Assembly: GCA_019358855.1 (NCBI GenBank)
Contig: JAHHII010000006.1
Span: 62,001-126,000 of the forward strand
Origin: Timaviella obliquedivisa GSE-PSE-MK23-08B
Lineage (GTDB): Bacteria > Cyanobacteriota > Cyanobacteriia > Elainellales > Elainellaceae
Reading direction: 5' to 3'
Length of the DNA stretch: 64,000 nucleotides
Below, one piece after another: positions 36,375 through 46,124 of this stretch. Both the position numbers and the translations under genes were made by a program. The notes under the pieces were generated by a model, which searched no databases, had not been told where the DNA came from, and saw only the letters and a program-made list of their open reading frames with translations. Each line of letters starts with the position of its first letter. Positions within the stretch are counted from its first letter, which is position 1.

Positions 36375-36686
36375 ATGACACCGTTAAAAACCAATTTGCC
36401 TGCACTCCACAACGTCGTTGCTGCCACGCAAGGTCAGATTTCTTCTAATCTTGCCGGAGAAGCAGTCATCCTCGATTTAACGTCAGGCATCTACTACGGC
36501 TTAAATGAGGTCGGAGCAAAAATTTGGCATCTTATTCAACAACCCTGCACGATTCAAGCAATTCAGCATAGTTTACTTCAAGAGTACGATGTTGAGTCCG
36601 AAATTTGTACTCAAGATCTTCTCCAACTTCTGCAAGAATTACAAGCCGCTGGATTGGTCAACATTAGCCATGAAACATCTGCATAG
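36375..36686 (+). CDS. Lasso-peptide B1 protein (PqqD-like RiPP recognition element)
   Basis: 103 residues, PqqD fold: AVILDLTSGIYYGLNEVGAK (strands of the peptide-binding winged helix) and a helical C terminus with QDLLQLLQELQAAGLV. In split lasso systems the B1 protein binds the precursor leader at its YxxP motif and presents it to the B2 protease. The precursor at 39270 carries this motif. First gene of the operon, Shine-Dalgarno GGGGA. It overlaps the B2 gene by 17 bases. Confidence 0.93.
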   Translation: MTPLKTNLPALHNVVAATQGQISSNLAGEAVILDLTSGIYYGLNEVGAKIWHLIQQPCTIQAIQHSLLQEYDVESEICTQDLLQLLQELQAAGLVNISHETSA

Positions 36687-37140
36687 GCTCAAGAGTTTAG
36701 CTCAAATGTCGGGAAGCGATCGCCTTCACCTGCTCAACGCCTTTTTGCTGCTCTCATTAATTAGGCTAAGTTTATGGCTACTGCCCTTTCGGCTAGTGTT
36801 AAAGCTAGTTCAAAGGTTAAGCAATCCCTTGCAGATATCTCAAAAAGGCGGCTCACCAGTCTCACCTGACTACCCAATCAGCCACATTGTTTGGCGGGTG
36901 AATGTTAGCAGCCAGTACATGCCAGGAGGCGCAAAATGTCTTGCCCGTGCCCTAACAACCCAAGTGTTATTGCACCGACAAGGATATCTCCCGGATCTGC
37001 GCATTGGAGTCGCGAAAGCAGCAGCAGGGCAGTTAGAAGCCCATGCCTGGGTTGAGTATCAAGGTCGCGTCGTCATCGGTCAGTTAAAGGATCTCGCACG
37101 ATATCTACCACTACCGTCTCTCGAAGGAGTCAAGTTATGA
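36670..37140 (+). CDS. Lasso-peptide B2 protein (leader peptidase)
   Basis: 156 residues from the ATG at 36670, inside the end of the B1 gene; the longer upstream frame is only antiphase B1 sequence. It belongs to the transglutaminase-like cysteine protease group of lasso B proteins. The hydrophobic N terminus (about 18-45) is usual for B2. Catalytic Cys is in GGAKCLARAL (about 83) and His in LEAHAWVEY (about 120). The third triad residue (Asp about 12 residues after the His) is not obvious. It cuts the leader after the B1-presented precursor is engaged. It overlaps the cyclase gene as ATGA (37137-37140). Confidence 0.93.
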   Translation: MKHLHRLKSLAQMSGSDRLHLLNAFLLLSLIRLSLWLLPFRLVLKLVQRLSNPLQISQKGGSPVSPDYPISHIVWRVNVSSQYMPGGAKCLARALTTQVLLHRQGYLPDLRIGVAKAAAGQLEAHAWVEYQGRVVIGQLKDLARYLPLPSLEGVKL

Positions 37141-39089
37141 GTGGTATTTTGGGAATTTACAATCTTGATAATCAATCGGTAAAGCGTCAAGATTTAACAC
37201 GAATGGCTGATATTTTAACCCATCGAGGTAGAGATGGGTCTGGAATTTGGCAGGAAGGGGCGATCGGGTTGGGGCATCGAATGCTATGGACAACACCAGA
37301 GTCGTTATTAGAACAATTGCCGCTTCAGAGTGACGGCTTAGTGCTGACCGCAGATGCACGAATTGATAATCGGGAGGAGTTAATTCAGTCACTAGAATTG
37401 AGAAACTTGCCTGTCGAAAAAATTACCGATAGCGATTTAATTCTTTCTGCATATCGACAATGGGGCGAAGATTGTGCGAAGTATTTGTTAGGAGATTTTG
37501 CATTCGCCATCTGGGATCAGAAAAATCAGCAATTGTTCTGCGCCCGTGACCATTTTGGAGTCAAGCCGTTTTACTACTACGCATCTAGCCAAACCTGGGT
37601 ATTTGCATCTGAAATCAAGGCTCTGTTTGAAGTTGCAATAGTTCCTCAACATTTGAATGAAGAACGTGTTGCAGACTATCTTCTCACTCAATTCGACGAT
37701 AAAGAAATTACATTTTATCAGGAAGTTTTGCGGCTTCCGCCTGCCCATTGTCTAACCGTTCGTTCAACGGGTGGTCAAGTCAATGCCTACTGGGCGCTCG
37801 ACCCCGAACAGACCTTACAATTCGAGACTCCTGAGCAATATGCTCAAGAACTTCAAAGGATCTTTGCAGAAGCAGTTCGCTGTAGATTAAGAAGTGCTTT
37901 GCCAGTAGGGGCTATGTTGAGTGGAGGCTTAGATTCCTCTTCGATCGCTTGTATGGCAGGTCGTTTAATTGAGTCCGATCGCCATCTTTCTACGTTCTCA
38001 GCCATCTTTGATGATGTGCCTGAATGTGATGAACGCGCCTATATTAACCCTGTCCTTGAGCAAGGAAAATTTGATCCTCATTATGTGTACGGAGATCAGG
38101 TTAGTCCGCTGGTAGATATCGAACAAGTGCTTTGGCACCAAGATCAACCCCTTTTTGCCTACAACTTGTTTTTAAATTGGAGCCTCTACCGCGTTGCACA
38201 AGCTCACCATACTAGGGTTATCTTAGACGGATTTGATGGCGACAGCACCGTTTCCCATGGCACTAGCTATTTATTAGAACTTGCCCAAAGCTGTCTCTGG
38301 CTAAGGCTTTATCGAGAAATTCGAGGCCTGAACCAAAACTTTGATCAACAGTTTCGAGGAACATTTAAAACTTTGTTTTGGCGCTATGGCGTTCAACCCG
38401 TCATTGCAAAAATATTGCCCCTTCGGTTTCTGAAACGGGTTGGGAGGGCGATCGATCGCAAAATAAGTTCCTCCAAATTATCCAATACCTTATCCTGGAC
38501 TCACGCAATCCATCCTAATTTTATTCAGCGCCTAAATCTAGAAGCCCGACGCAAAAATAAACCTATCCCGTTCCCCCAAAAATTATCACCCGCCAAAGCC
38601 GCACACTATTACAGCTTAGTTCGAGGTGTCATGCCTTACACCCTAGAAGTGCTAGATCATGCGGCAGCAGCATTTTCAATTGAACTTCGATTTCCTTTTT
38701 GGGATAAACGACTGGTTGAGTTTTGTCTGGCAATTCCACCTGAGCAAAAAATGGAACAAGGCTGGACAAGAATGATCATGCGTCGAGCCATGGCAGGAAT
38801 TCTGCCTGATGCCGTGCAGTGGCGACGCGGTAAGGCAAACTTGGGTTCAAGCTTTACGTATGGTCTATTAACCTACGAAAGAGAACGACTAACAGAACTC
38901 TTTTTGAATACTTCTCAGGACAGTTCTACCTATCTCAATCAAACAAACTTACAACACTCCTGTGAACGTTTTATAAACAGTAATTCTCAGGAAAATGATA
39001 TATCTAGCCTCTGGCAGGCATTGAGTTTATCTCTGTGGATGAAGGAAAAAGGATTTGGATGTAACGTTGCAGACGTAACGGAGGCGTGA
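37137..39089 (+). CDS. Lasso-peptide C protein (asparagine-synthetase-like macrolactam cyclase)
   Basis: 650 residues. The N-terminal class II glutaminase-like domain (about 1-210) begins MSGILGIY, with Ser where true asparagine synthetases have the catalytic Cys. It therefore cannot use glutamine, as in known lasso cyclases. The C-terminal synthetase domain has the PP loop SGGLDSSS (about 264-271) for ATP. It adenylates the ring Asp/Glu side chain and closes the bond to the core N terminus around the threaded tail. Translation is coupled to B2 through the ATGA overlap. About 180 bases separate it from the precursor gene. Confidence 0.94.
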   Translation: MSGILGIYNLDNQSVKRQDLTRMADILTHRGRDGSGIWQEGAIGLGHRMLWTTPESLLEQLPLQSDGLVLTADARIDNREELIQSLELRNLPVEKITDSDLILSAYRQWGEDCAKYLLGDFAFAIWDQKNQQLFCARDHFGVKPFYYYASSQTWVFASEIKALFEVAIVPQHLNEERVADYLLTQFDDKEITFYQEVLRLPPAHCLTVRSTGGQVNAYWALDPEQTLQFETPEQYAQELQRIFAEAVRCRLRSALPVGAMLSGGLDSSSIACMAGRLIESDRHLSTFSAIFDDVPECDERAYINPVLEQGKFDPHYVYGDQVSPLVDIEQVLWHQDQPLFAYNLFLNWSLYRVAQAHHTRVILDGFDGDSTVSHGTSYLLELAQSCLWLRLYREIRGLNQNFDQQFRGTFKTLFWRYGVQPVIAKILPLRFLKRVGRAIDRKISSSKLSNTLSWTHAIHPNFIQRLNLEARRKNKPIPFPQKLSPAKAAHYYSLVRGVMPYTLEVLDHAAAAFSIELRFPFWDKRLVEFCLAIPPEQKMEQGWTRMIMRRAMAGILPDAVQWRRGKANLGSSFTYGLLTYERERLTELFLNTSQDSSTYLNQTNLQHSCERFINSNSQENDISSLWQALSLSLWMKEKGFGCNVADVTEA

Positions 39090-39269
39090 CAAGAACCGAC
39101 TTAGATCATACATCTAGAACTCAAATGGCTATTCTGTCGGTTGAGAATTCAAAAACAACCGACAGCCCAGCTATTTTGGAATTACTTTTTATCGAAGATA
39201 GTTCCCAATGGCTGTATTGATGAACCCGACCAGGTTCTGTTAAGTCAACCTAAATTTAAGGAGAAAGTC

Positions 39270-39416
39270 ATGTCTTCTAATCGTCTCTATGTCAAGCCTG
39301 AACTAACTGTTCATGGCAATGTTGAAACCATCACCCAACAGGGTGGCTTTAGCAACACAGATGTTCCTGCTGGTACTCCCGTAGGCCCCGCTGGTGTTGT
39401 AACAGTTGCTTCTTAG
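39270..39416 (+). CDS. Lasso-peptide precursor (A)
   Basis: 48 residues. The ATG at 39270 has a clear Shine-Dalgarno (AAGGAG); the in-frame open region upstream (from 39141) is non-coding leader. The leader has the YxxP recognition motif (YVKPELTVHGNVETIT, 7-22). With Thr22 as the conserved -2 Thr, the core is residues 24-48, from Gln24 to a C-terminal Ser. Asp31 then sits at core position 8, giving an 8-residue macrolactam. The alternative core starting at Gly25 would give a 7-residue ring. The tail (VPAGTPVGPAGVVTVAS) has no aromatic or basic plug residue, and the core has no Cys. The C-terminal Ser is the expected phosphorylation site for the adjacent HprK-like kinase. Confidence 0.92.
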   Translation: MSSNRLYVKPELTVHGNVETITQQGGFSNTDVPAGTPVGPAGVVTVAS

Positions 39417-39427
39417 TAAGCGCTAAC

Positions 39428-39464
39428 CTGTCGAGGCTTAAGCTTAGGCGAACAGCCTCGACAG
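39428..39464 (+). promoter_or_regulatory. Hairpin between precursor and kinase genes
   Basis: CTGTCGAGGCT / AGCCTCGACAG, an 11-bp perfect stem with a 15-base loop, 11 bases after the precursor stop. No strong U run. It is likely an attenuator or 3' stabiliser that raises precursor mRNA over the downstream tailoring and export genes. Confidence 0.75.
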
Positions 39465-39495
39465 ACTTCTTTAGGTTCTTAAAATCTTCAGTTCT

Positions 39496-40458
39496 ATGAA
39501 AATTAATCTACCCGATCGCGTCTTGGCTACAACATCCACCTCTAAAACAGCACCCGCTCAACCGTCGTTTTTTTATACGGCGTATGGCATTAATATTTGT
39601 TCTGATATTCTGTTGCCAGAATTAGTTGTGAGCGCTAACCCTCAGGTAGATGCGATCGTTCAGTTTGGGGTACTGTCTAGCCCACTCGATCATTCAAGTG
39701 CCCATAGTTTTCAAATGACTCCCGATGGCATGTATTTATTCTGGCAGGAGATCGGCACATTTTTAATTCGTAATGGTAAAGAAATTATCATCGATCCGCT
39801 CCCAGAAGCCGATGAAAGTCGGTTACGGTTGTTTATTTTAGGAGCAGCCATGGGTGTGCTGCTGCATCAACGGGGGCATTTTATTTTACATGCCAGCGCT
39901 GTTGCTATTCATGGAGCAGCGGTTGTATTTACAGGCGACAAAGGCTGGGGCAAATCTACGATCGCCGCTGCTCTTTGTCAGCGCGGGCATCGGCTTCTAG
40001 CAGATGATGTTGTAGCACTTACCGCCAGTGATTCAGAGCAGCAGGTTATCCCAGCCTTCCCTCAACTCAAACTATGGCTAGATGCTGTGACTTTTCTTGG
40101 AAATCATCCTGATGACTTTCCGCCCCTCGTTCCTCATTTAGATAAACGAGATTGTCGGCTGACTGAAGAATTCATTAATACCGTCGTTCCACTTCAGCAC
40201 ATTTTTGTACTCGGTCGGGGAGACAAAGTTGAAATTCAGCGAATGCCACCCCAAGAAGTTTTACTTTACTTAATGCGGAATTCTTACATTACTCGCTTTG
40301 GTGAAGAATTGCTAAAGAGCGATCGCGCTACTCATTTTTTGAAACTAACTCAACTCTCTCAACAAGTTGCTATTTGGCGGTTATTACGCCCTAACAATTT
40401 ATCTCAACTCACAGAGACAGCCGAGTTCATAGAGGCACACATTGCGTTTAATTGCTAG
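39496..40458 (+). CDS. HPr-kinase-like lasso-peptide kinase (PadeK/ThcoK type)
   Basis: 320 residues. The C-terminal HprK/P-like domain (about 128-245) has His in FILHASAVAIHG (132), P loop GDKGWGKST (147-155) and a double Asp in LLADDVVAL (170-171). The N-terminal half (about 25-125) is the extra domain seen in cluster-linked HprK homologues. In paeninodin-type clusters such kinases phosphorylate the C-terminal Ser of the lasso precursor, and the precursor encoded 80 bases upstream ends in Ser. That match makes the role likely, but it is inferred. Confidence 0.87.
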   Translation: MKINLPDRVLATTSTSKTAPAQPSFFYTAYGINICSDILLPELVVSANPQVDAIVQFGVLSSPLDHSSAHSFQMTPDGMYLFWQEIGTFLIRNGKEIIIDPLPEADESRLRLFILGAAMGVLLHQRGHFILHASAVAIHGAAVVFTGDKGWGKSTIAAALCQRGHRLLADDVVALTASDSEQQVIPAFPQLKLWLDAVTFLGNHPDDFPPLVPHLDKRDCRLTEEFINTVVPLQHIFVLGRGDKVEIQRMPPQEVLLYLMRNSYITRFGEELLKSDRATHFLKLTQLSQQVAIWRLLRPNNLSQLTETAEFIEAHIAFNC

Positions 40459-40512
40459 ATATTTTGTGCAATGTAATGAACGGTAAGAGATCATGATCAG
40501 GAGTGTTCTACA

Positions 40513-42360
40513 ATGTTTGTCAATAATATTAAACGTTATGCTGCTCAGATCTCTTACTTTCCTAGAACATTTCGTCTAATCTGGTCTGCATCAAAGCATT
40601 GGACTATTATTTGGAGTGTCCTGCTCGTTATTCAAGGTATTTTACCCGCCGTTACTGTTTATTTGACTCGCACCTTGGTCAACCAATTGCTAGTAGCGGT
40701 GGGTTCAGGGGTTTCTTGGGAAAGCGTACAAGTGATTTTGCTTCCGGCAACACTCATGGCGATCGTCATCCTGATGACGGAAGTGCTGCAAGGCGTTAGC
40801 GAATGGGTGCGAACTGCTCAATCTGATCTCGTGCAAGATTATATTAGCGGACTGGTTCATCAGCAGTCGGTTCGCATTGACTACGGTTGCTACGAATCTT
40901 CTGACTACAATGATCGCCTTGAGCAAGCCCGTGAAGGAGCCACGACACGACCGCTTGCATTGTTGGAAAACGCAGGCAGTCTGGTTCAAAATATCATTAC
41001 CCTGCTGGCAATGGCAGCGATTTTGCTCCCCTATGGTCAATGGTTGCCCATCCTTCTGTTTATTAGCGCCCTCCCTGCTTTTTATGTCGCCCTCCGGCTC
41101 AATATCCGACAGTACCAATGGTCGCAGCGGACAACGATCGATCGCCGCCGGTTGCACTACTACGATTCTCTACTAACAAATAGTTGGGTAGCCGCCGAAC
41201 TGCGCCTCTTCAATTTTGGCTCTTTTTTTCAAACTGCCTATCAGCGTCTACGGCAACGGCTGCGTCGTGAAACCATGACCCTTCTACGCGACCAAACCCT
41301 AAGCCGCTTGATGGCAGGGGCGATCGCTTTGGTGATCGCGGCTGGAACCATGACCTGGATGGGTCGCCAAGTCCTGCTCGGTCTAGTCACGCTAGGTGAT
41401 TTAGCACTTTTTTATCAGGCCTTTAACAAAGGGCAACTCATCATTAAATCGTTGCTAGGCAACCTGGGGCAAATCTACAAAAATAGCTTATTTATTAGTA
41501 ATTTGTTTGAGTTTTTAGAACTTAGCCCTGAAATTACCGATCCGCCTCAGCCTCTCGCCGTTCCTTCCCCACTTAAAAAAAGCGTCACCTTTCGCCAAGT
41601 AACCTTTCAATATCCTGGCAGCCAAGACGCAACCCTGGAAGATTTTAATCTCACCATTCCATCTGGCAAGATTGTTGCCATTGTCGGCGACAACGGTGCA
41701 GGTAAAAGTACGCTCATTAAACTTCTCTGTCGTTTTTATGATCCTCAAGCTGGTGGCATTGAACTGGATGGGATTGACCTACGTTCATTTTCAGTCGCAG
41801 ACCTGCGCAGTATGATCACAGTTCTGTTTCAAAATCCCATCCCCTACTACGTCACTGCCGCCGAAAGCTTAGCCCTGGGAGATTTATCCACAACGCCCAG
41901 CCCTGCTGAAATAGAACGAGCCGCCAAAGATGCAGGCATTCATGACAAAATTACGCGTTTACCTCAAGGCTATGGTTCCTTACTCGGAAAATGGTTCCCA
42001 GGGGGCAGCGATCTGAGCGGCGGTGAATGGCAACGCCTTGCCTTGGCACGAGCCTTTTTACGGCGGGCGCAGTTAATTATTTTAGATGAACCGACTAGCG
42101 CCATGGATCCTTGGGCTGAGTTTGATTGGTTAGAGCGGTTTCGGACTTTAGCCAATGGACGCACCGCGATCGTCATTACTCATCGCTTTACGTTAGCCAT
42201 GCGGGCTGATGTAATTCATGTGATGCGTGCCGGAAAAATTGTGGAATCAGGAAACCATGATGAACTGCTTGCCCAAGACGGACTGTATGCCCAGTCTTGG
42301 AAAACTCAAATGCAAACTTCTTCGGTTGCACCCCAGCAGCCTATTGCAAAATTCACCTAA
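40513..42360 (+). CDS. ABC exporter of the lasso cluster (D protein)
   Basis: 615 residues, a half transporter with six predicted membrane helices (about 25-330) and a C-terminal nucleotide-binding domain (about 355-600). Walker A GDNGAGKST (about 394), signature LSGGEW (about 500), Walker B LIILDEPTSAMD (about 518-529), switch His in VITHRF. No C39 peptidase domain, consistent with cleavage by B2 instead. It presumably exports the mature lasso peptide and gives immunity. Confidence 0.93.
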   Translation: MFVNNIKRYAAQISYFPRTFRLIWSASKHWTIIWSVLLVIQGILPAVTVYLTRTLVNQLLVAVGSGVSWESVQVILLPATLMAIVILMTEVLQGVSEWVRTAQSDLVQDYISGLVHQQSVRIDYGCYESSDYNDRLEQAREGATTRPLALLENAGSLVQNIITLLAMAAILLPYGQWLPILLFISALPAFYVALRLNIRQYQWSQRTTIDRRRLHYYDSLLTNSWVAAELRLFNFGSFFQTAYQRLRQRLRRETMTLLRDQTLSRLMAGAIALVIAAGTMTWMGRQVLLGLVTLGDLALFYQAFNKGQLIIKSLLGNLGQIYKNSLFISNLFEFLELSPEITDPPQPLAVPSPLKKSVTFRQVTFQYPGSQDATLEDFNLTIPSGKIVAIVGDNGAGKSTLIKLLCRFYDPQAGGIELDGIDLRSFSVADLRSMITVLFQNPIPYYVTAAESLALGDLSTTPSPAEIERAAKDAGIHDKITRLPQGYGSLLGKWFPGGSDLSGGEWQRLALARAFLRRAQLIILDEPTSAMDPWAEFDWLERFRTLANGRTAIVITHRFTLAMRADVIHVMRAGKIVESGNHDELLAQDGLYAQSWKTQMQTSSVAPQQPIAKFT

Positions 42361-42380
42361 CGCTGAACATTCACCCGATT

Positions 42381-43505
42381 ATGAAAACCCTATCTCCCTC
42401 TCTTCGTCAGCCAAAAGCCAGTATTCGTCCCGAAAACGAACTCATGTTTTGCTGTGCGCGTGTTCAAGTTGAGCCGCAAACCTCTCAACGAATTCAAGCC
42501 CTTATTCAACAAAATCTCGACTGGCAAGCAGTGATTCAACTGGCTTATCGACATGGTGTCATGCCACTGCTGTATAAAAATCTCCATGCCATCTCCCCTC
42601 AAGCAATGCCTGGGGCAGATTTTGAACAATTACGCCATTTATTTAAAGCCAACACGCAACGCAGTTTACTGTTGGCGGGAGAACTCGTCAAAATTTTAAC
42701 TCTGTTCAATCAGCATCAGATTGCAGCTGTGCCATACAAAGGGCCCGTTTTAGCCAATGCGGTATACGGGGGTGTAGCGTTTCGGCAATATTTTGACTTA
42801 GATATTGTAGTGCAGCAGCAAGACGTATTACCCGCTAAGTTACTGCTTATTGAACAGGGATATATCCCCAAAGATAAGATGAATGAACTAGAAGAAGAAG
42901 CGTTTTTACAATCACGAGATGAACATAACTACACCTTAATTCATACCGATAAAAGAATAGCAGTAGAACTTCACTGGCGAATTACACCGCGATCGACTTC
43001 AGTCATTGAACCTAAGCACTTTTGGGAACGGCTAGAACCTGATCTGTTTGCAGGCACTCAAATTGCCAATTTATCTCTTGAAGAATGGCTGCCTATTCTT
43101 TGTGTTCACGGTTCTCGCCATCGCTGGGAACGCTTAACTTGGCTATGCGATATTGCTGAAATTATGCGACTTCGCCCCGAGCTAGATTGGGATGCAGTCA
43201 TAGCCCGATCGCAAATTCTGGTGTGTCAACGGATGTTATTTTTGGGTGTGCTGCTGGCTCACCGTTTGCTTGATGCGCCTCTACCGATCGCCATTTTACA
43301 AAGAATGCAGACCCATTCAGAAGTAGTGACACTGGTGAATAGCACCTACCAGCAGCTTTTATCCGAAACCAAAGTATCAGATCAATTTTTAGGCAAAACG
43401 ATTTACCAAATCCGGGTCAGCGATCGCTTTCAGGAAAGGGCGATCTACCTGCAATCTTTTTTACAATGGCTGATTAATCCTGATAAAAGAGTTGTGCATC
43501 ATTAA
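42381..43505 (+). CDS. Nucleotidyltransferase-family tailoring protein of the lasso cluster
   Basis: 374 residues from the ATG at 42381, 20 bases after the exporter stop; the longer frame from 42297 overlaps the exporter. Motif VPYKGPVLANAVYGG then FDLDIVVQQQD (about 118-128) is the family's NTase core with its Asp pair. The remainder is helical. This family is recurrent in lasso clusters with a kinase. In the pseudomycoidin cluster the homologue is needed for addition of a hexose to the phosphorylated C terminus. Convergent with the next gene, overlapping by 3 bases. Confidence 0.88.
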   Translation: MKTLSPSLRQPKASIRPENELMFCCARVQVEPQTSQRIQALIQQNLDWQAVIQLAYRHGVMPLLYKNLHAISPQAMPGADFEQLRHLFKANTQRSLLLAGELVKILTLFNQHQIAAVPYKGPVLANAVYGGVAFRQYFDLDIVVQQQDVLPAKLLLIEQGYIPKDKMNELEEEAFLQSRDEHNYTLIHTDKRIAVELHWRITPRSTSVIEPKHFWERLEPDLFAGTQIANLSLEEWLPILCVHGSRHRWERLTWLCDIAEIMRLRPELDWDAVIARSQILVCQRMLFLGVLLAHRLLDAPLPIAILQRMQTHSEVVTLVNSTYQQLLSETKVSDQFLGKTIYQIRVSDRFQERAIYLQSFLQWLINPDKRVVHH

Positions 43506-43864
43506 GAGCTTTGAATCGGTTGGCGGTGAAGGCAGCGATCGCACGAGCCTTCTGGATTAATGGCGCATCGCAGCAGTTCCGATCGGGCATTGTACAAACA
43601 GGTCACATCACCAATAACCCAATAGCCATTCACTAAGCTCATGTCTGCTGGAGCATCAAACTTTTGAACGTAGAGAGCAACTTTACTCATTTGGTAACGC
43701 CCTGCCTTGAGATGATAATGATGCCGCCGCTCTAAAACCAGGTACGTTTGACCCTCAAATTCTAAATAGCCTCCGGGCTGAAGGTTTCCCTGTAACGATA
43801 GGTGACCCAGAACCGAATGGGAATGGCTGAAAATAATTTCTGCGGATAGAGAACTTAGCTCCAT
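43502..43864 (-). CDS. DUF6464 family protein
   Basis: 120 residues, conserved cyanobacterial family of unknown function. LQPGGYLEFEGQTYLVLERR followed by a segment ending in YVQK, then VNGYWVIGDVTCLYNARSEL and Cys-rich CAINPEGSCDRC near the end. The paired Cys (about 101-112) could bind metal. It marks the right edge of the lasso operon. Confidence 0.85.
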   Translation of the reverse strand: MELSSLSAEIIFSHSHSVLGHLSLQGNLQPGGYLEFEGQTYLVLERRHHYHLKAGRYQMSKVALYVQKFDAPADMSLVNGYWVIGDVTCLYNARSELLRCAINPEGSCDRCLHRQPIQSS

Positions 43865-44033: not shown

Positions 44034-46124
44034 TTAGGAGGCGGCGGCTGCCTGACGCTCTTTCGCTTCCTTAATCACCTCTTCAGCAATGTTGCTAGGA
44101 CAAGGTGAATAGTGCGAGAACGACATTGAGAACTGTCCACGCCCAGAAGTCATGGTGCGCAAATCGCCAATGTAGCCAAACATTTCACTGAGCGGCACAT
44201 CAGCTTTAATGCGCGCACCCGTTTGTCCAGTCTCTTGAGATTTCATCATGCCTCGGCGGCGGTTAAGGTCACCAATTACGTCGCCCATGTAGTCATCAGG
44301 GGTAAAAACATCGACGTTCATAATCGGTTCTAGAAGCTGCGGCCCAGCTTTAGGCATGGTTTGACGGTAAGCAGCTTTAGCAGCAATTTCAAAAGCGATC
44401 GCCGATGAGTCAACCGGGTGAAAGCCACCTTCTGTCAGCGTGAACTTCAAGTCCATGCAAGGAAATCCTGCCAACACGCCCTTATCAATACAACTCTCGA
44501 AGCCTTTTTGCACCGCCGGCCAGTATTCTCTAGGAACGCTGCCCCCCGTCACTTTCGACTCAAACAAGAAGCCTGTCCCCGGTTCACCCGGTTCCAAAAT
44601 GTAGTTGATTTTAGCGTACTGACCGGAACCACCCGACTGCTTTTTGTGGACATAGCCATCTTCGAGGCGCTTCGTAATCGACTCGCGGTAAGCAACCTGC
44701 GGTTCGCCCACTTCCACCTCAACGCCGTGGGTGCGCTTGAGAATATCCACCTTAATATCCAGGTGCAACTCGCCCATGCCTTTCAGAATGGTTTCGCCGC
44801 TCTCCTCATCCGTCATCATGTGGAACGAGGGATCTTCCTGCACCATTTTGGTCAGCGCTGCGCCCATCTTTTCTTCGCCGCCTTTCACCTTCGGCTTCAC
44901 CGAAATTGAAATCACGGGTTCTGGGAAAACCATGGGTTCTAGCGTTGCCGGATTTTTGGGATCACAAATGGTATGCCCGGTGCGAACGTTTTTCATACCC
45001 ACGATCGCCACAATATCGCCCGCCTGTGCCGACTCAATTTCTTCGCGAGAGTTGGCGTGCATTTCTACCAAACGGCTGATTCGCTCGGTTTTGCCTGTAG
45101 CAGTGTTCAGCACCGTATCGCCTTTAGAAAGCGTGCCAGAGTAAAGGCGAGTAAAGGTCAATGCGCCAAAGCGATCGTCCATAATCTTAAATGCCAATGC
45201 CCGCAGCGGCTTCTCAGGATCAACAATGGCAAACGCCCCAGTTTCATTTCCTTCCAAATCCACCTCAGGCTGAGGGAGAACTTCCATAGGGTTAGGCAAA
45301 TAATCCACAACGGCATCCAGCACCAACTGCACGCCCTTGTTTTTGAACGACGAACCGCAATAGGTCGGGAAAAACTTCAGGTCGCGAGTGCCCTTCCGAA
45401 TACACCGCTTGATATCTTCCAGGCTAGGCTCTTCGCCTTCCAAATACTGTTCCATGACAGCATCATCTTGCTCAACCGCCATCTCGATCAGTTGTTCGCG
45501 GTAAGTTTCGACTATTTCAGCCATGTCAGCCGGAACATCGGTAATGGTGTATCCTAACGGATCGCCCGAATCATCCCAAATCCAGGCTTTCCGAGTCAGC
45601 AAATCGACCATGCCACTGAACTTTTCTTCAATGCCGATCGGCAATACCATGACCAACGGCTTCGCGGCTAGGATTTGATCAACCTGCTTGACGACGCGGT
45701 AAAAGTCAGCACCCGTGCGATCGAGCTTATTGATGTAAATCAAGCGCGCCACTTTAGAATCGTTGGCATAGCGCCAGTTCGTTTCAGACTGAGGCTCAAC
45801 GCCGCCAGAGCCACAGAAAACCCCAACCCCACCATCCAGTACCTTCAGGGAGCGGTAAACTTCAATGGTGAAATCGACGTGACCGGGAGTATCAATAATG
45901 TTCAGTTGATGCTCGTTCCAAAAGCAGGTGGTGGCAGCCGACTGAATGGTGATGCCGCGCTCTTGCTCTTGCGCCATGAAGTCTGTTGTTGCTGCGCCCT
46001 CGTGAACCTCACCGATTTTGTGGATTTTTCCGGTTAGCTTCAAGATTCTTTCAGTGGTGGTGGTTTTGCCAGCATCAACGTGAGCGAAGATGCCGATATT
46101 TCGATAGCGAGTAAGATCTTTCAT
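44034..46124 (-). CDS. fusA: Elongation factor G
   Basis: 696 residues, full-length EF-G: GTPase G1 [12 protein letters not shown] (14-25), G2 RGITIQSA, G3 DTPGHVDF, G4 NKLD, then domains II-V. It drives ribosomal translocation. The gene is alone and not in the str operon (no rpsL, rpsG, tufA nearby). Its N-terminal sequence ([20 protein letters not shown]) fits the main type. Cyanobacteria often carry more than one EF-G gene, so this may be a paralogue. Several long open frames on the opposite strand are shadows. Confidence 0.96.

What the first reader, a model, noticed from the sequence alone, without database searches (positions are those of the whole stretch)
36375..43505. Complete lasso-peptide cluster with kinase and nucleotidyltransferase in a cyanobacterium
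Seven plus-strand genes in order B1-B2-C-A-kinase-exporter-nucleotidyltransferase, with translational overlaps (17 bp, ATGA) among B1, B2 and C. The combination of an HprK-like kinase, a nucleotidyltransferase and a precursor ending in Ser is that of the paeninodin/pseudomycoidin class described in Bacillales. A cyanobacterial version with this precursor is, as far as I can tell, undescribed.
Basis: partly seen in the sequence, partly recalled or inferred. Interest (0 to 1): 0.88.

Follow-up and report, generated by a model that had tools for sequence, protein, structure and literature searches.

The report
Cyanobacterial phospho-lasso peptide gene cluster
A Leptolyngbya-like cyanobacterium carries a complete gene set for a knotted, probably phosphorylated and perhaps sugar-tagged peptide; similar sets turn out to be common in cyanobacteria, and many, this one included, seem to start the peptide ring with unusual amino acids.

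Summary
In detail: seven plus-strand genes B1-B2-C-A-kinase-exporter-nucleotidyltransferase lie at 36375-43505, with the 17-bp and ATGA overlaps. Profiles name B1, B2, a lasso cyclase and a lasso leader; the kinase keeps the lasso-kinase motif at exact spacing. A close relative (MAG CSU_1_4) has the same operon; its precursor is 48/48 identical despite 8 synonymous changes, so the peptide is under selection.

The gene combination is that of paeninodin/pseudomycoidin, but it is not a cyanobacterial singularity: in 61 loci, 63 of 66 cyclases have such a kinase nearby and 34 of 66 a nucleotidyltransferase, and NCBIfam already holds cyanobacterial lasso models.

What looks new is in the comparison. 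(1) The Thr(-2) register predicts a Gln1-Asp8 ring; residue 1 is Gly in only 11 of 65 representative cores. (2) Two large clades differ: in the window's clade cores end in Ser; in the other the tail more often holds an internal GSx(D/N) motif. The remaining lineages are mixed. This suggests different phospho-acceptors.

No product has been seen. Verdict: a new member of a known kind, in an under-described family.

The parts
36375..36686 (+). B1: PqqD-like leader-binding protein (RRE)
   Evidence: PF05402 E 9.4e-20, NF033536 81.4 bits; closest solved chains 9x90_B (lasso PqqD chaperone, E 5.5e-14) and TbiB1 5v1u (E 1.8e-8)
36670..37140 (+). B2: transglutaminase-like leader peptidase; Cys90 and His125
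   Evidence: PF13471, NF033537 113 bits; C90 and H125 in 59 of 59 aligned B2 proteins
37137..39089 (+). C: lasso (isopeptide-forming) cyclase, AsnB family
   Evidence: NF033535 862.3 bits against cut-off 525; SGGLDSS motif read in the translation
39123..39176 (+). inverted repeat between C and A (21-nt arms, 81% complementary)
   Evidence: the CTGTCGGTTG / CAACCGACAG core is unchanged in L032
39270..39338 (+). leader of precursor A (23 aa; YxxPxLxxxG and Thr at -2)
   Evidence: NF033521 above cut-off; one of 95 precursors with this motif in 55 loci
39339..39413 (+). predicted core QGGFSNTDVPAGTPVGPAGVVTVAS; ring Gln1-Asp8; last residue Ser25
   Evidence: register from Thr(-2): first acidic residue from position 7 on lies at 8 or 9 in 51 of 65 representative cores; 2000 shuffles gave mean 13.3 and at most 25; 48/48 identity with L032 with only synonymous changes
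39428..39464 (+). stem-loop between A and kinase (11-bp perfect stem), probable attenuator
   Evidence: (z -2.87, 1 of 200 shuffles as stable); stem kept with a compensatory change in L032; a stem of other letters read by eye in L096, none evident in L125 or L177 in that alignment
39496..40458 (+). K: HprK-like precursor kinase
   Evidence: PF07475 43.5 bits; H132-G147-G150-G152-K153-S154-D170-D171, identical spacing to the BsfK motif H148...D187; solved HprK chains hit at E 4.1e-9
40513..42360 (+). D: ABC exporter (MsbA-like)
   Evidence: PF00005 105 bits; MsbA_rel family hit below its cut-off
42381..43505 (+). NT: nucleotidyltransferase-like protein, PsmN type by annotation and context
   Evidence: PF14907 200.6 bits; K120, G121, Y129, R135, D139, D141 in 37 of 37 aligned homologues

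Best explanation
The operon makes a phosphorylated, probably further glycosylated, class II (disulfide-free) lasso peptide. B1 binds the YxxPxL leader. The HprK-like kinase phosphorylates the terminal Ser25 on the linear precursor. NT then decorates that phosphate, most likely with hexose as reported for PsmN. B2 cuts between Gln(-1) and Gln1, two residues after the conserved Thr. C activates Asp8 and closes an eight-residue Gln1-Asp8 macrolactam around the tail, and D exports the product. Shown here: the gene content, the conserved catalytic residues, the selection on the precursor, the statistical register of the ring, and the terminal Ser of the clade. Inferred from known families: every enzymatic step, the order of steps, and the sugar.
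For: Profile hits for B1, B2, C, the leader, the kinase and NT. Catalytic motifs in K, B2 and NT kept across homologues, with K spacing identical to the characterised BsfK. Precursor under strict purifying selection, 0/106 nonsynonymous against 8/38 synonymous. Ring register: 51 of 65 representative cores have the first acidic residue (from position 7 on) at 8 or 9 counted from Thr(-2), against a shuffle mean of 13.3 and maximum of 25. In the starred 14-row cyclase clade that holds the window, 13 of 14 rows have a precursor ending in Ser; in a starred 27-row clade 1 of 26 labelled rows does. The kinase tree is similar: 15 of 17 rows against 1 of 24 labelled rows. Stem-loop after A kept by compensatory change in L032, as expected for an operon that makes more precursor than enzyme.
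Against: No product or expression data exist. The characterised kinase BsfK phosphorylates Ser3 of the ring, not the last residue, so homology alone does not fix the site; ring Ser5 is also present in 4 of 11 representative cores of the clade. Terminal Ser is not confined to the window's clade: 8 of 20 labelled cyclase rows outside the two clades have it. Nucleotidyltransferase presence and terminal Ser are not significantly associated over loci (Fisher p 0.25; Ser in last three residues p 0.099) nor in independent pairs on the tree. The cyanobacterial lasso model NF033528 is missed by 4 bits for A. Gln1 has no experimental precedent in the passages I saw, and free N-terminal Gln can turn into pyroglutamate, which would block ring closure (general chemistry, recalled).
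Confidence: 0.57

Rival explanations
1. Same lasso peptide, but the kinase phosphorylates ring Ser5 (or another internal residue) and NT acts there, not at Ser25.
For: BsfK, a lasso kinase with the same motif, is strictly regioselective for residue 3 of the ring (PMC10368454 passages), and LppK for S3 of its peptide (PMC13381572 passages). Ring Ser5 is present in the close relatives L125, L177 (first precursor) and L181 and in L174. Cyanobacterial relatives of this kinase serve precursors with no terminal Ser.
Against: Ring Ser5 is absent from L096 (QGGPPVRVD), L176 and the second L177 precursor. In the clade's 11 representatives Ser5 occurs in 4, terminal Ser in 10.
Confidence: 0.2
2. The core starts one residue later (Gly1), giving a 24-residue peptide with a seven-residue Gly1-Asp7 ring.
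For: Gly is the classical first residue and Gly-Gly follows the predicted Gln1.
Against: It would put Thr at -3, against the Thr(-2) rule that a 2023 paper states for all lasso precursors known before its own Ile(-2) case (passages). Relatives in the same clade have Ala, Lys or Asn at that place with the same spacing to Asp (L125, L177, L181), and the register statistics favour rings of 8 or 9.
Confidence: 0.12
3. NT is not a glycosyl-adding enzyme but a true nucleotidyltransferase (or a resistance/editing factor), so the product is a phospho- or nucleotidyl-peptide without sugar.
For: The review of pseudomycoidin leaves open that PsmN nucleotidylates and a host enzyme adds the hexose (PMC9266682 passages). 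The catalytic G-R-DxD residues are fully conserved in 37 of 37. 30 of the 63 cyclases with a kinase have no NT within 8 kb, some of them on contigs that end early.
Against: Knock-outs assigned hexose addition to PsmN in that system. In cyclase-less cyanobacterial clusters NT stands with glycosyltransferases and an NDP-sugar epimerase, which fits a sugar pathway.
Confidence: 0.3
4. The cluster is decaying or silent and makes nothing.
For: No expression data. In L032 the exporter is split over two overlapping frames, though that is a low-coverage MAG (cov 2.58 in its record title).
Against: All seven genes are open in the window, with pN/pS 0.12 to 0.19 in the five other genes tested (B1, B2, C, K, NT; D was not computed) and 0 in A.
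Confidence: 0.03

Closest known systems
Paeninodin (Paenibacillus)
   Same: Class II, HprK-like tailoring kinase with the His-Lys-Asp-Asp set, precursor ending in Ser (PMC9266682 passages), separate B1, B2 and C.
   Different: Predicted first residue Gln instead of Ala and an eight-residue ring (paeninodin core recalled, not fetched); NT gene present here; cyanobacterial host; product not shown.
Pseudomycoidin (Bacillus pseudomycoides; PsmK and PsmN)
   Same: Kinase plus nucleotidyltransferase-like protein and terminal Ser (PMC9266682 passages).
   Different: Same combination in another phylum; no direct sequence comparison with PsmN was made, since I had no PsmN sequence and its paper was not held.
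Cyanobacterial lasso clusters (NCBIfam NF033535 lass_lactam_cya, NF033528 lasso_cyano)
   Same: Cyclase 337 bits over its cut-off; same gene set in many cyanobacteria.
   Different: Precursor just under the NF033528 cut-off; belongs to a terminal-Ser clade distinct from the larger clade with internal GSx(D/N) tails.
Bradymonas bsf lasso cluster (BsfK)
   Same: Kinase motif with identical spacing.
   Different: BsfK targets Ser3; leader has Ile(-2) instead of Thr(-2).
LPP family of Bacillota (LppA-K-B-S-D-N)
   Same: HprK-like kinase, RRE, MsbA-like exporter and NTP transferase together (PMC13381572 passages).
   Different: LPP uses a signal-peptidase-like protease and only about a third of such loci have lasso enzymes; here B2 and C are present.

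Membership tests
Lasso peptide cluster | AsnB-type isopeptide cyclase of the lasso family | tested here: met
   NF033535 862.3 bits, cut-off 525. By sequence no solved lasso cyclase was hit at E 1e-5; the best chains are a hydroxyamidotransferase (7ylz) and asparagine synthetases
Lasso peptide cluster | Leader peptidase B2 and RRE protein B1 | tested here: met
   NF033537 113 bits, NF033536 81.4 bits; B2 Cys and His in 59 of 59
Lasso peptide cluster | Precursor with YxxPxL leader, Thr(-2) and acidic residue at core position 7-9 | tested here: met
   YVKPEL...ITQ|QGGFSNTD, D8
Lasso peptide cluster | Threaded macrolactam product | not testable with these tools
   needs expression and tandem mass spectrometry
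Phosphorylated (paeninodin-type) lasso | HprK-like kinase with H...GxxGxGKS...DD | tested here: met
   H132, G147, G150, G152, K153, S154, D170, D171; offset 16 throughout from BsfK
Phosphorylated (paeninodin-type) lasso | C-terminal Ser, conserved among relatives | tested here: met
   10 of 11 representative cores of a hand-picked set of the clade end in Ser; 13 of 14 rows of the whole clade have such a precursor
Phosphorylated (paeninodin-type) lasso | Ser phosphorylation observed | not testable with these tools
   no product data
Pseudomycoidin-type (kinase plus PsmN) | PF14907 nucleotidyltransferase in the cluster | tested here: met
   200.6 bits, cut-off 31.2; that PsmN itself is PF14907 is assumed, not tested
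Pseudomycoidin-type (kinase plus PsmN) | Direct sequence relation of NT to PsmN | not tested
   PsmN sequence not at hand; paper not held
Pseudomycoidin-type (kinase plus PsmN) | NT co-occurs with terminal Ser across genomes | tested here: inconclusive
   Fisher p 0.25 and 0.099; independent pairs not informative
NF033528 lasso_cyano precursor | Score over the curated cut-off | tested here: not met
   28.9 bits, cut-off 33; so A is not filed in that family, only near it
Bacillota LPP family | Archaeal-type signal peptidase SpI in place of B2/C | tested here: not met
   no signal-peptidase family among the Pfam hits of the seven genes; B2 and C are present

The most novel reading that the evidence does not exclude
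Cyanobacteria hold a large phospho-lasso family in which the ring-closing first residue is nearly free (Gln here; Ile, Val, Lys, Asn, Phe elsewhere; Gly in only 11 of 65 representative cores). Within it at least two kinase/cyclase clades have different phospho-acceptors: a terminal Ser in the window's clade, and an internal GSx(D/N) Ser in the larger one. The window's peptide would be the first Gln1 lasso peptide and a cyanobacterial phospho- or glyco-phospho-lasso.
Probability: 0.4. Interest if true: 0.62.

Novelty: new member of a known kind. Interest (0 to 1): 0.42.

Why it matters
The metanodin paper of 2025 names Gly, Cys, Ser and Ala as examples of observed first ring residues and reports Asn as new (PMC12670498, section read); Trp1 in fusilassin is recalled by me, so that list is not complete. 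A natural family that uses Gln, Lys, Ile or Val there would widen what can be made with these enzymes. The clade difference offers a ready comparison for how one kinase fold chooses a terminal or an internal Ser. A kinase beside 63 of 66 cyclases says that phosphorylation is a core step of these cyanobacterial lasso peptides, not a rare decoration.

Tried and rejected
Idea: NT goes with terminal Ser. Tested by locus (NT anywhere on the fetched stretch: last residue Ser, 13 of 30 loci with NT against 6 of 24 without, p 0.25; Ser in last three, 20 of 30 against 10 of 24, p 0.099; L032 left out as a near copy of the window) and on the cyclase tree. Not supported; not claimed.

Idea: an ATP-grasp enzyme replaces the cyclase in the cyclase-less clusters L111, L112 and L114. 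Pfam on the L111 protein showed a group 1 glycosyltransferase instead; rejected.

Idea: close relatives on plasmids. tblastn of C against plasmids at E 1e-60 gave 2 records, a haloarchaeon and an alphaproteobacterium at about 37% identity; no bearing on the window.

Solved structures: B2 no match at E 1, NT no credible match. Repeating the phylum scan centred on G305 returned only loci already seen, so it added nothing. The precursor-only scan of 386 genomes gave 23 genomes (the window's own included) with matches up to E 0.1, most of them weak; eight places lie inside frames of 283 to 1496 codons and are probably chance.

What the counts leave out: the 66 cyclases are ORFs over 1.5 kb with at least 250 bits to my own profile in 61 loci (window and L032 included), so at least one (L150 2695) is below the NCBIfam cut-off; L105-L108 (below that cut-off) and L109-L114 (no cyclase found, fetched for other reasons) were dropped. 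Distances are between gene centres. 95 precursors came from one regular expression in 55 of the 61 loci; a wider pass later found three more (L095, L127, L177), not in the counts. In one search I picked loci by hand from the tree; L032, L102 and L175, which fall in the 14-row clade, were not in the terminal set (L102 cores end in V; L175 cores end in Ser or in Gly), and one L176 core that belongs to its second cyclase was left out. The label 'int' means any Sx(D/N) in the tail, which shuffled tails often show too (mean 14 of 31); the stricter GSx(D/N) is the informative one. The trees are the quick method with several long branches flagged; the 17-row kinase group has support 80 only. Absence of K or NT on contigs that end early (for example L102, L160, L171, L181) is not real absence.

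The ring-Ser rival went from 0.15 to 0.2 and the main reading from 0.6 to 0.57.
Full report
What is there. The seven genes reported are real and correctly placed. B1 (36375-36686) overlaps B2 (36670-37140) by 17 bp and B2 overlaps C (37137-39089) by ATGA. A (39270-39416) encodes 48 residues. The kinase K is at 39496-40458, the exporter D at 40513-42360 and the nucleotidyltransferase NT at 42381-43505. Pfam and NCBIfam name B1, B2, the lasso cyclase, a lasso leader, an HPr-kinase domain, an ABC transporter and NTP_transf_5. The cyanobacterial precursor model NF033528 is missed by about 4 bits; the leader model NF033521 is passed. The window's genome has 4.91 Mb in 29 contigs.

A second copy and selection. 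A scan of genome contigs with patterns from the kinase, which reaches close relatives only, confirmed one locus: contig JAAUPA010000186 of the MAG Leptolyngbyaceae cyanobacterium CSU_1_4 (L032). It carries the same genes in the same order, with the exporter split over two overlapping frames in this low-coverage assembly, and beyond them pieces of the same minus-strand gene that follows in the window (44034-46124, elongation factor G by my own recognition, no profile run). A same-genus genome, G417, has its cyclase at the same contig coordinates as L032 and is presumably the same assembly. Between the window and L032, B1, B2, C, K and NT are 84 to 90% identical with pN/pS 0.12 to 0.19 (D was not computed), whereas A has 0 nonsynonymous changes at 106 sites and 8 synonymous changes at 38. 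The peptide sequence is what selection keeps.

How common it is. NF033535 is over its cut-off in 17 of 386 cyanobacterial genomes drawn over the phylum, 8 of 36 in the window's order and 46 of 388 in the order of G305 (these draws overlap). I examined 61 loci that carry a cyclase (window and L032 included) with profiles built from homologues of the window's proteins. Of 66 cyclases, 63 have the kinase on the same strand within 5 kb, 34 have NT within 8 kb on either strand and 25 have the full set. So kinase-bearing lasso clusters are the rule in this sample of cyanobacteria, and this cluster is one of many. The nearest cyclases beyond L032 are those of L125, L181, L096 and L177.

Core and ring. 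One regular expression found 95 precursors (92 distinct cores) in 55 of 61 loci. Counting from the conserved Thr as -2, the first acidic residue from position 7 on falls at 8 or 9 in 51 of 65 representative cores; 2000 shuffles gave a mean of 13.3 and at most 25. In this register the window's core is QGGFSNTDVPAGTPVGPAGVVTVAS with a Gln1-Asp8 ring, lasso mass 2266.123. Position 1 is Gly in 11 of 65 representatives, Ala in 20, Gln in 8, Ile in 5, Asn, Ser and Val in 4 each, Phe and Lys in 3 each, and Leu, Thr and Tyr in 1 each. Within the window's 14-row clade it is Gln, Ala, Lys, Asn, Gly, Ser or Glu. The 2025 metanodin paper reports Asn as a first and names Gly, Cys, Ser and Ala as examples of the observed kinds (abstract and one section read). 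Trp1 in fusilassin is recalled by me, so that list is not complete; a 2014 caulonodin title on 'unprecedented N-terminal residues' was seen only in a reference list. The other near-constant is Gly at position 3, in 42 of 65, which I cannot explain.

Kinase and acceptor. The kinase keeps H132, G147, G150, G152, K153, S154, D170 and D171. H, K, S and two of the glycines are in 68 of 68 aligned sequences, both Asp in 67 of 68 and G147 in 61 of 68. The spacing matches the BsfK motif H148-G163-G166-G168-K169-S170-D186-D187 at a constant offset of 16 (motif from PMC10368454 passages). In the cyclase tree the window sits in a starred 14-row clade in which 13 rows have a precursor ending in Ser. A starred 27-row clade has such a precursor in 1 of 26 labelled rows. 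The other 25 rows are mixed: 8 of 20 labelled ones have it. Tails in the 27-row clade hold GSx(D/N) in 19 of 31 representatives, against a shuffle mean of 2.2 and maximum of 8 in 1000; the hand-picked set of the window's clade has none and ends in Ser in 10 of 11. The kinase tree is similar: 15 of 17 rows of the window's group (support 80) serve a terminal-Ser precursor, 1 of 24 labelled rows in the starred 25-row clade does, and at least 8 changes of that label are needed on the tree. Known lasso kinases hit a terminal Ser (paeninodin type; review passages) or Ser3 of the ring (BsfK), so both readings have precedent. Ring Ser5 of the window is shared by L125, L177, L181 and L174 but not by L096 or L176. 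NT keeps K120, G121, Y129, R135, D139 and D141 in 37 of 37. NT presence does not track terminal Ser significantly.

Regulation. Between A and K lies an 11-bp perfect stem at 39428-39464, kept in L032 with a compensatory change and present with other letters in L096; it was not evident in L125 or L177 in the same alignment. It is probably an attenuator that keeps enzyme below precursor. A second inverted repeat stands between C and A.

Literature. Nine searches for lasso peptide with cyanobacteria, kinase, nucleotidyltransferase, HPr kinase, phosphorylation, Nostoc, Leptolyngbya and first-residue terms led me to open four papers that mention cyanobacterial lasso clusters: PMC9332814, PMC9967302, PMC6460039 and PMC8600333 (passages). 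None of these passages ties the kinase or NT to the cluster. Seen as passages only: PMC9266682, PMC13352647, PMC13381572, PMC10368454, PMC7533575. PMC8498205 was searched for terms with no hit. Other listed papers were not opened. The paeninodin and pseudomycoidin papers were not held and Tietz 2017 was not read.

Verdict. A real, intact, selected phospho-lasso cluster of paeninodin/pseudomycoidin type in a Leptolyngbya-like cyanobacterium. It is a new member of a known kind, and the kind is already widespread in cyanobacteria. Its scientific interest lies in the predicted Gln1 ring, the free first residue in the family, and the clades with different likely phospho-acceptors.

Noticed in passing
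L111, L112, L114 (L113 partial): Cyanobacterial clusters with B2, HprK-like kinase, exporter and NT (B1 too in L111, L112, L114) in which no cyclase was found. A protein of L111 is a group 1 glycosyltransferase; L114 has a family 2 glycosyltransferase and an NDP-sugar epimerase. Precursors in L111, L112 and L114 (YSEPEL leader, core QVGGSGGF...) lack an acid at 8/9. They look like unringed phospho/glyco-peptides built on the lasso leader system.
   Followed up: partly
L109 7741-7935; L110 7408-7560: Orphan lasso-type precursors in G101 with none of the six profile genes on the 16 kb fetched; G101 has a full-looking cluster elsewhere (L097) with similar precursors, so these may be served in trans.
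   Followed up: no
L177 5109-5438: A second precursor missed by the first pattern: core QGGGNAVDVPIGTPIGPDGISSVTGDFS beside KGGASSTDVPVGTPVGPDGITSVAS, so one cyclase would face both Gln1 and Lys1.
   Followed up: partly
precursor cores of 55 loci, position 3: Gly is conserved at core position 3 (42 of 65 representatives) while position 1 is variable; no explanation.
   Followed up: no
L147 and L155: Cyclase loci with two NT genes each; no precursor was found by the pattern, and L147 has no kinase on the stretch fetched.
   Followed up: no
window 43502-43864: DUF6464 gene on the minus strand overlaps the end of NT by 4 bp, converging with the operon.
   Followed up: no
L032 1-400: The first few hundred bases of the MAG contig translate into frames unlike the window's upstream gene before window-like sequence begins; possibly an assembly chimera.
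   Followed up: no
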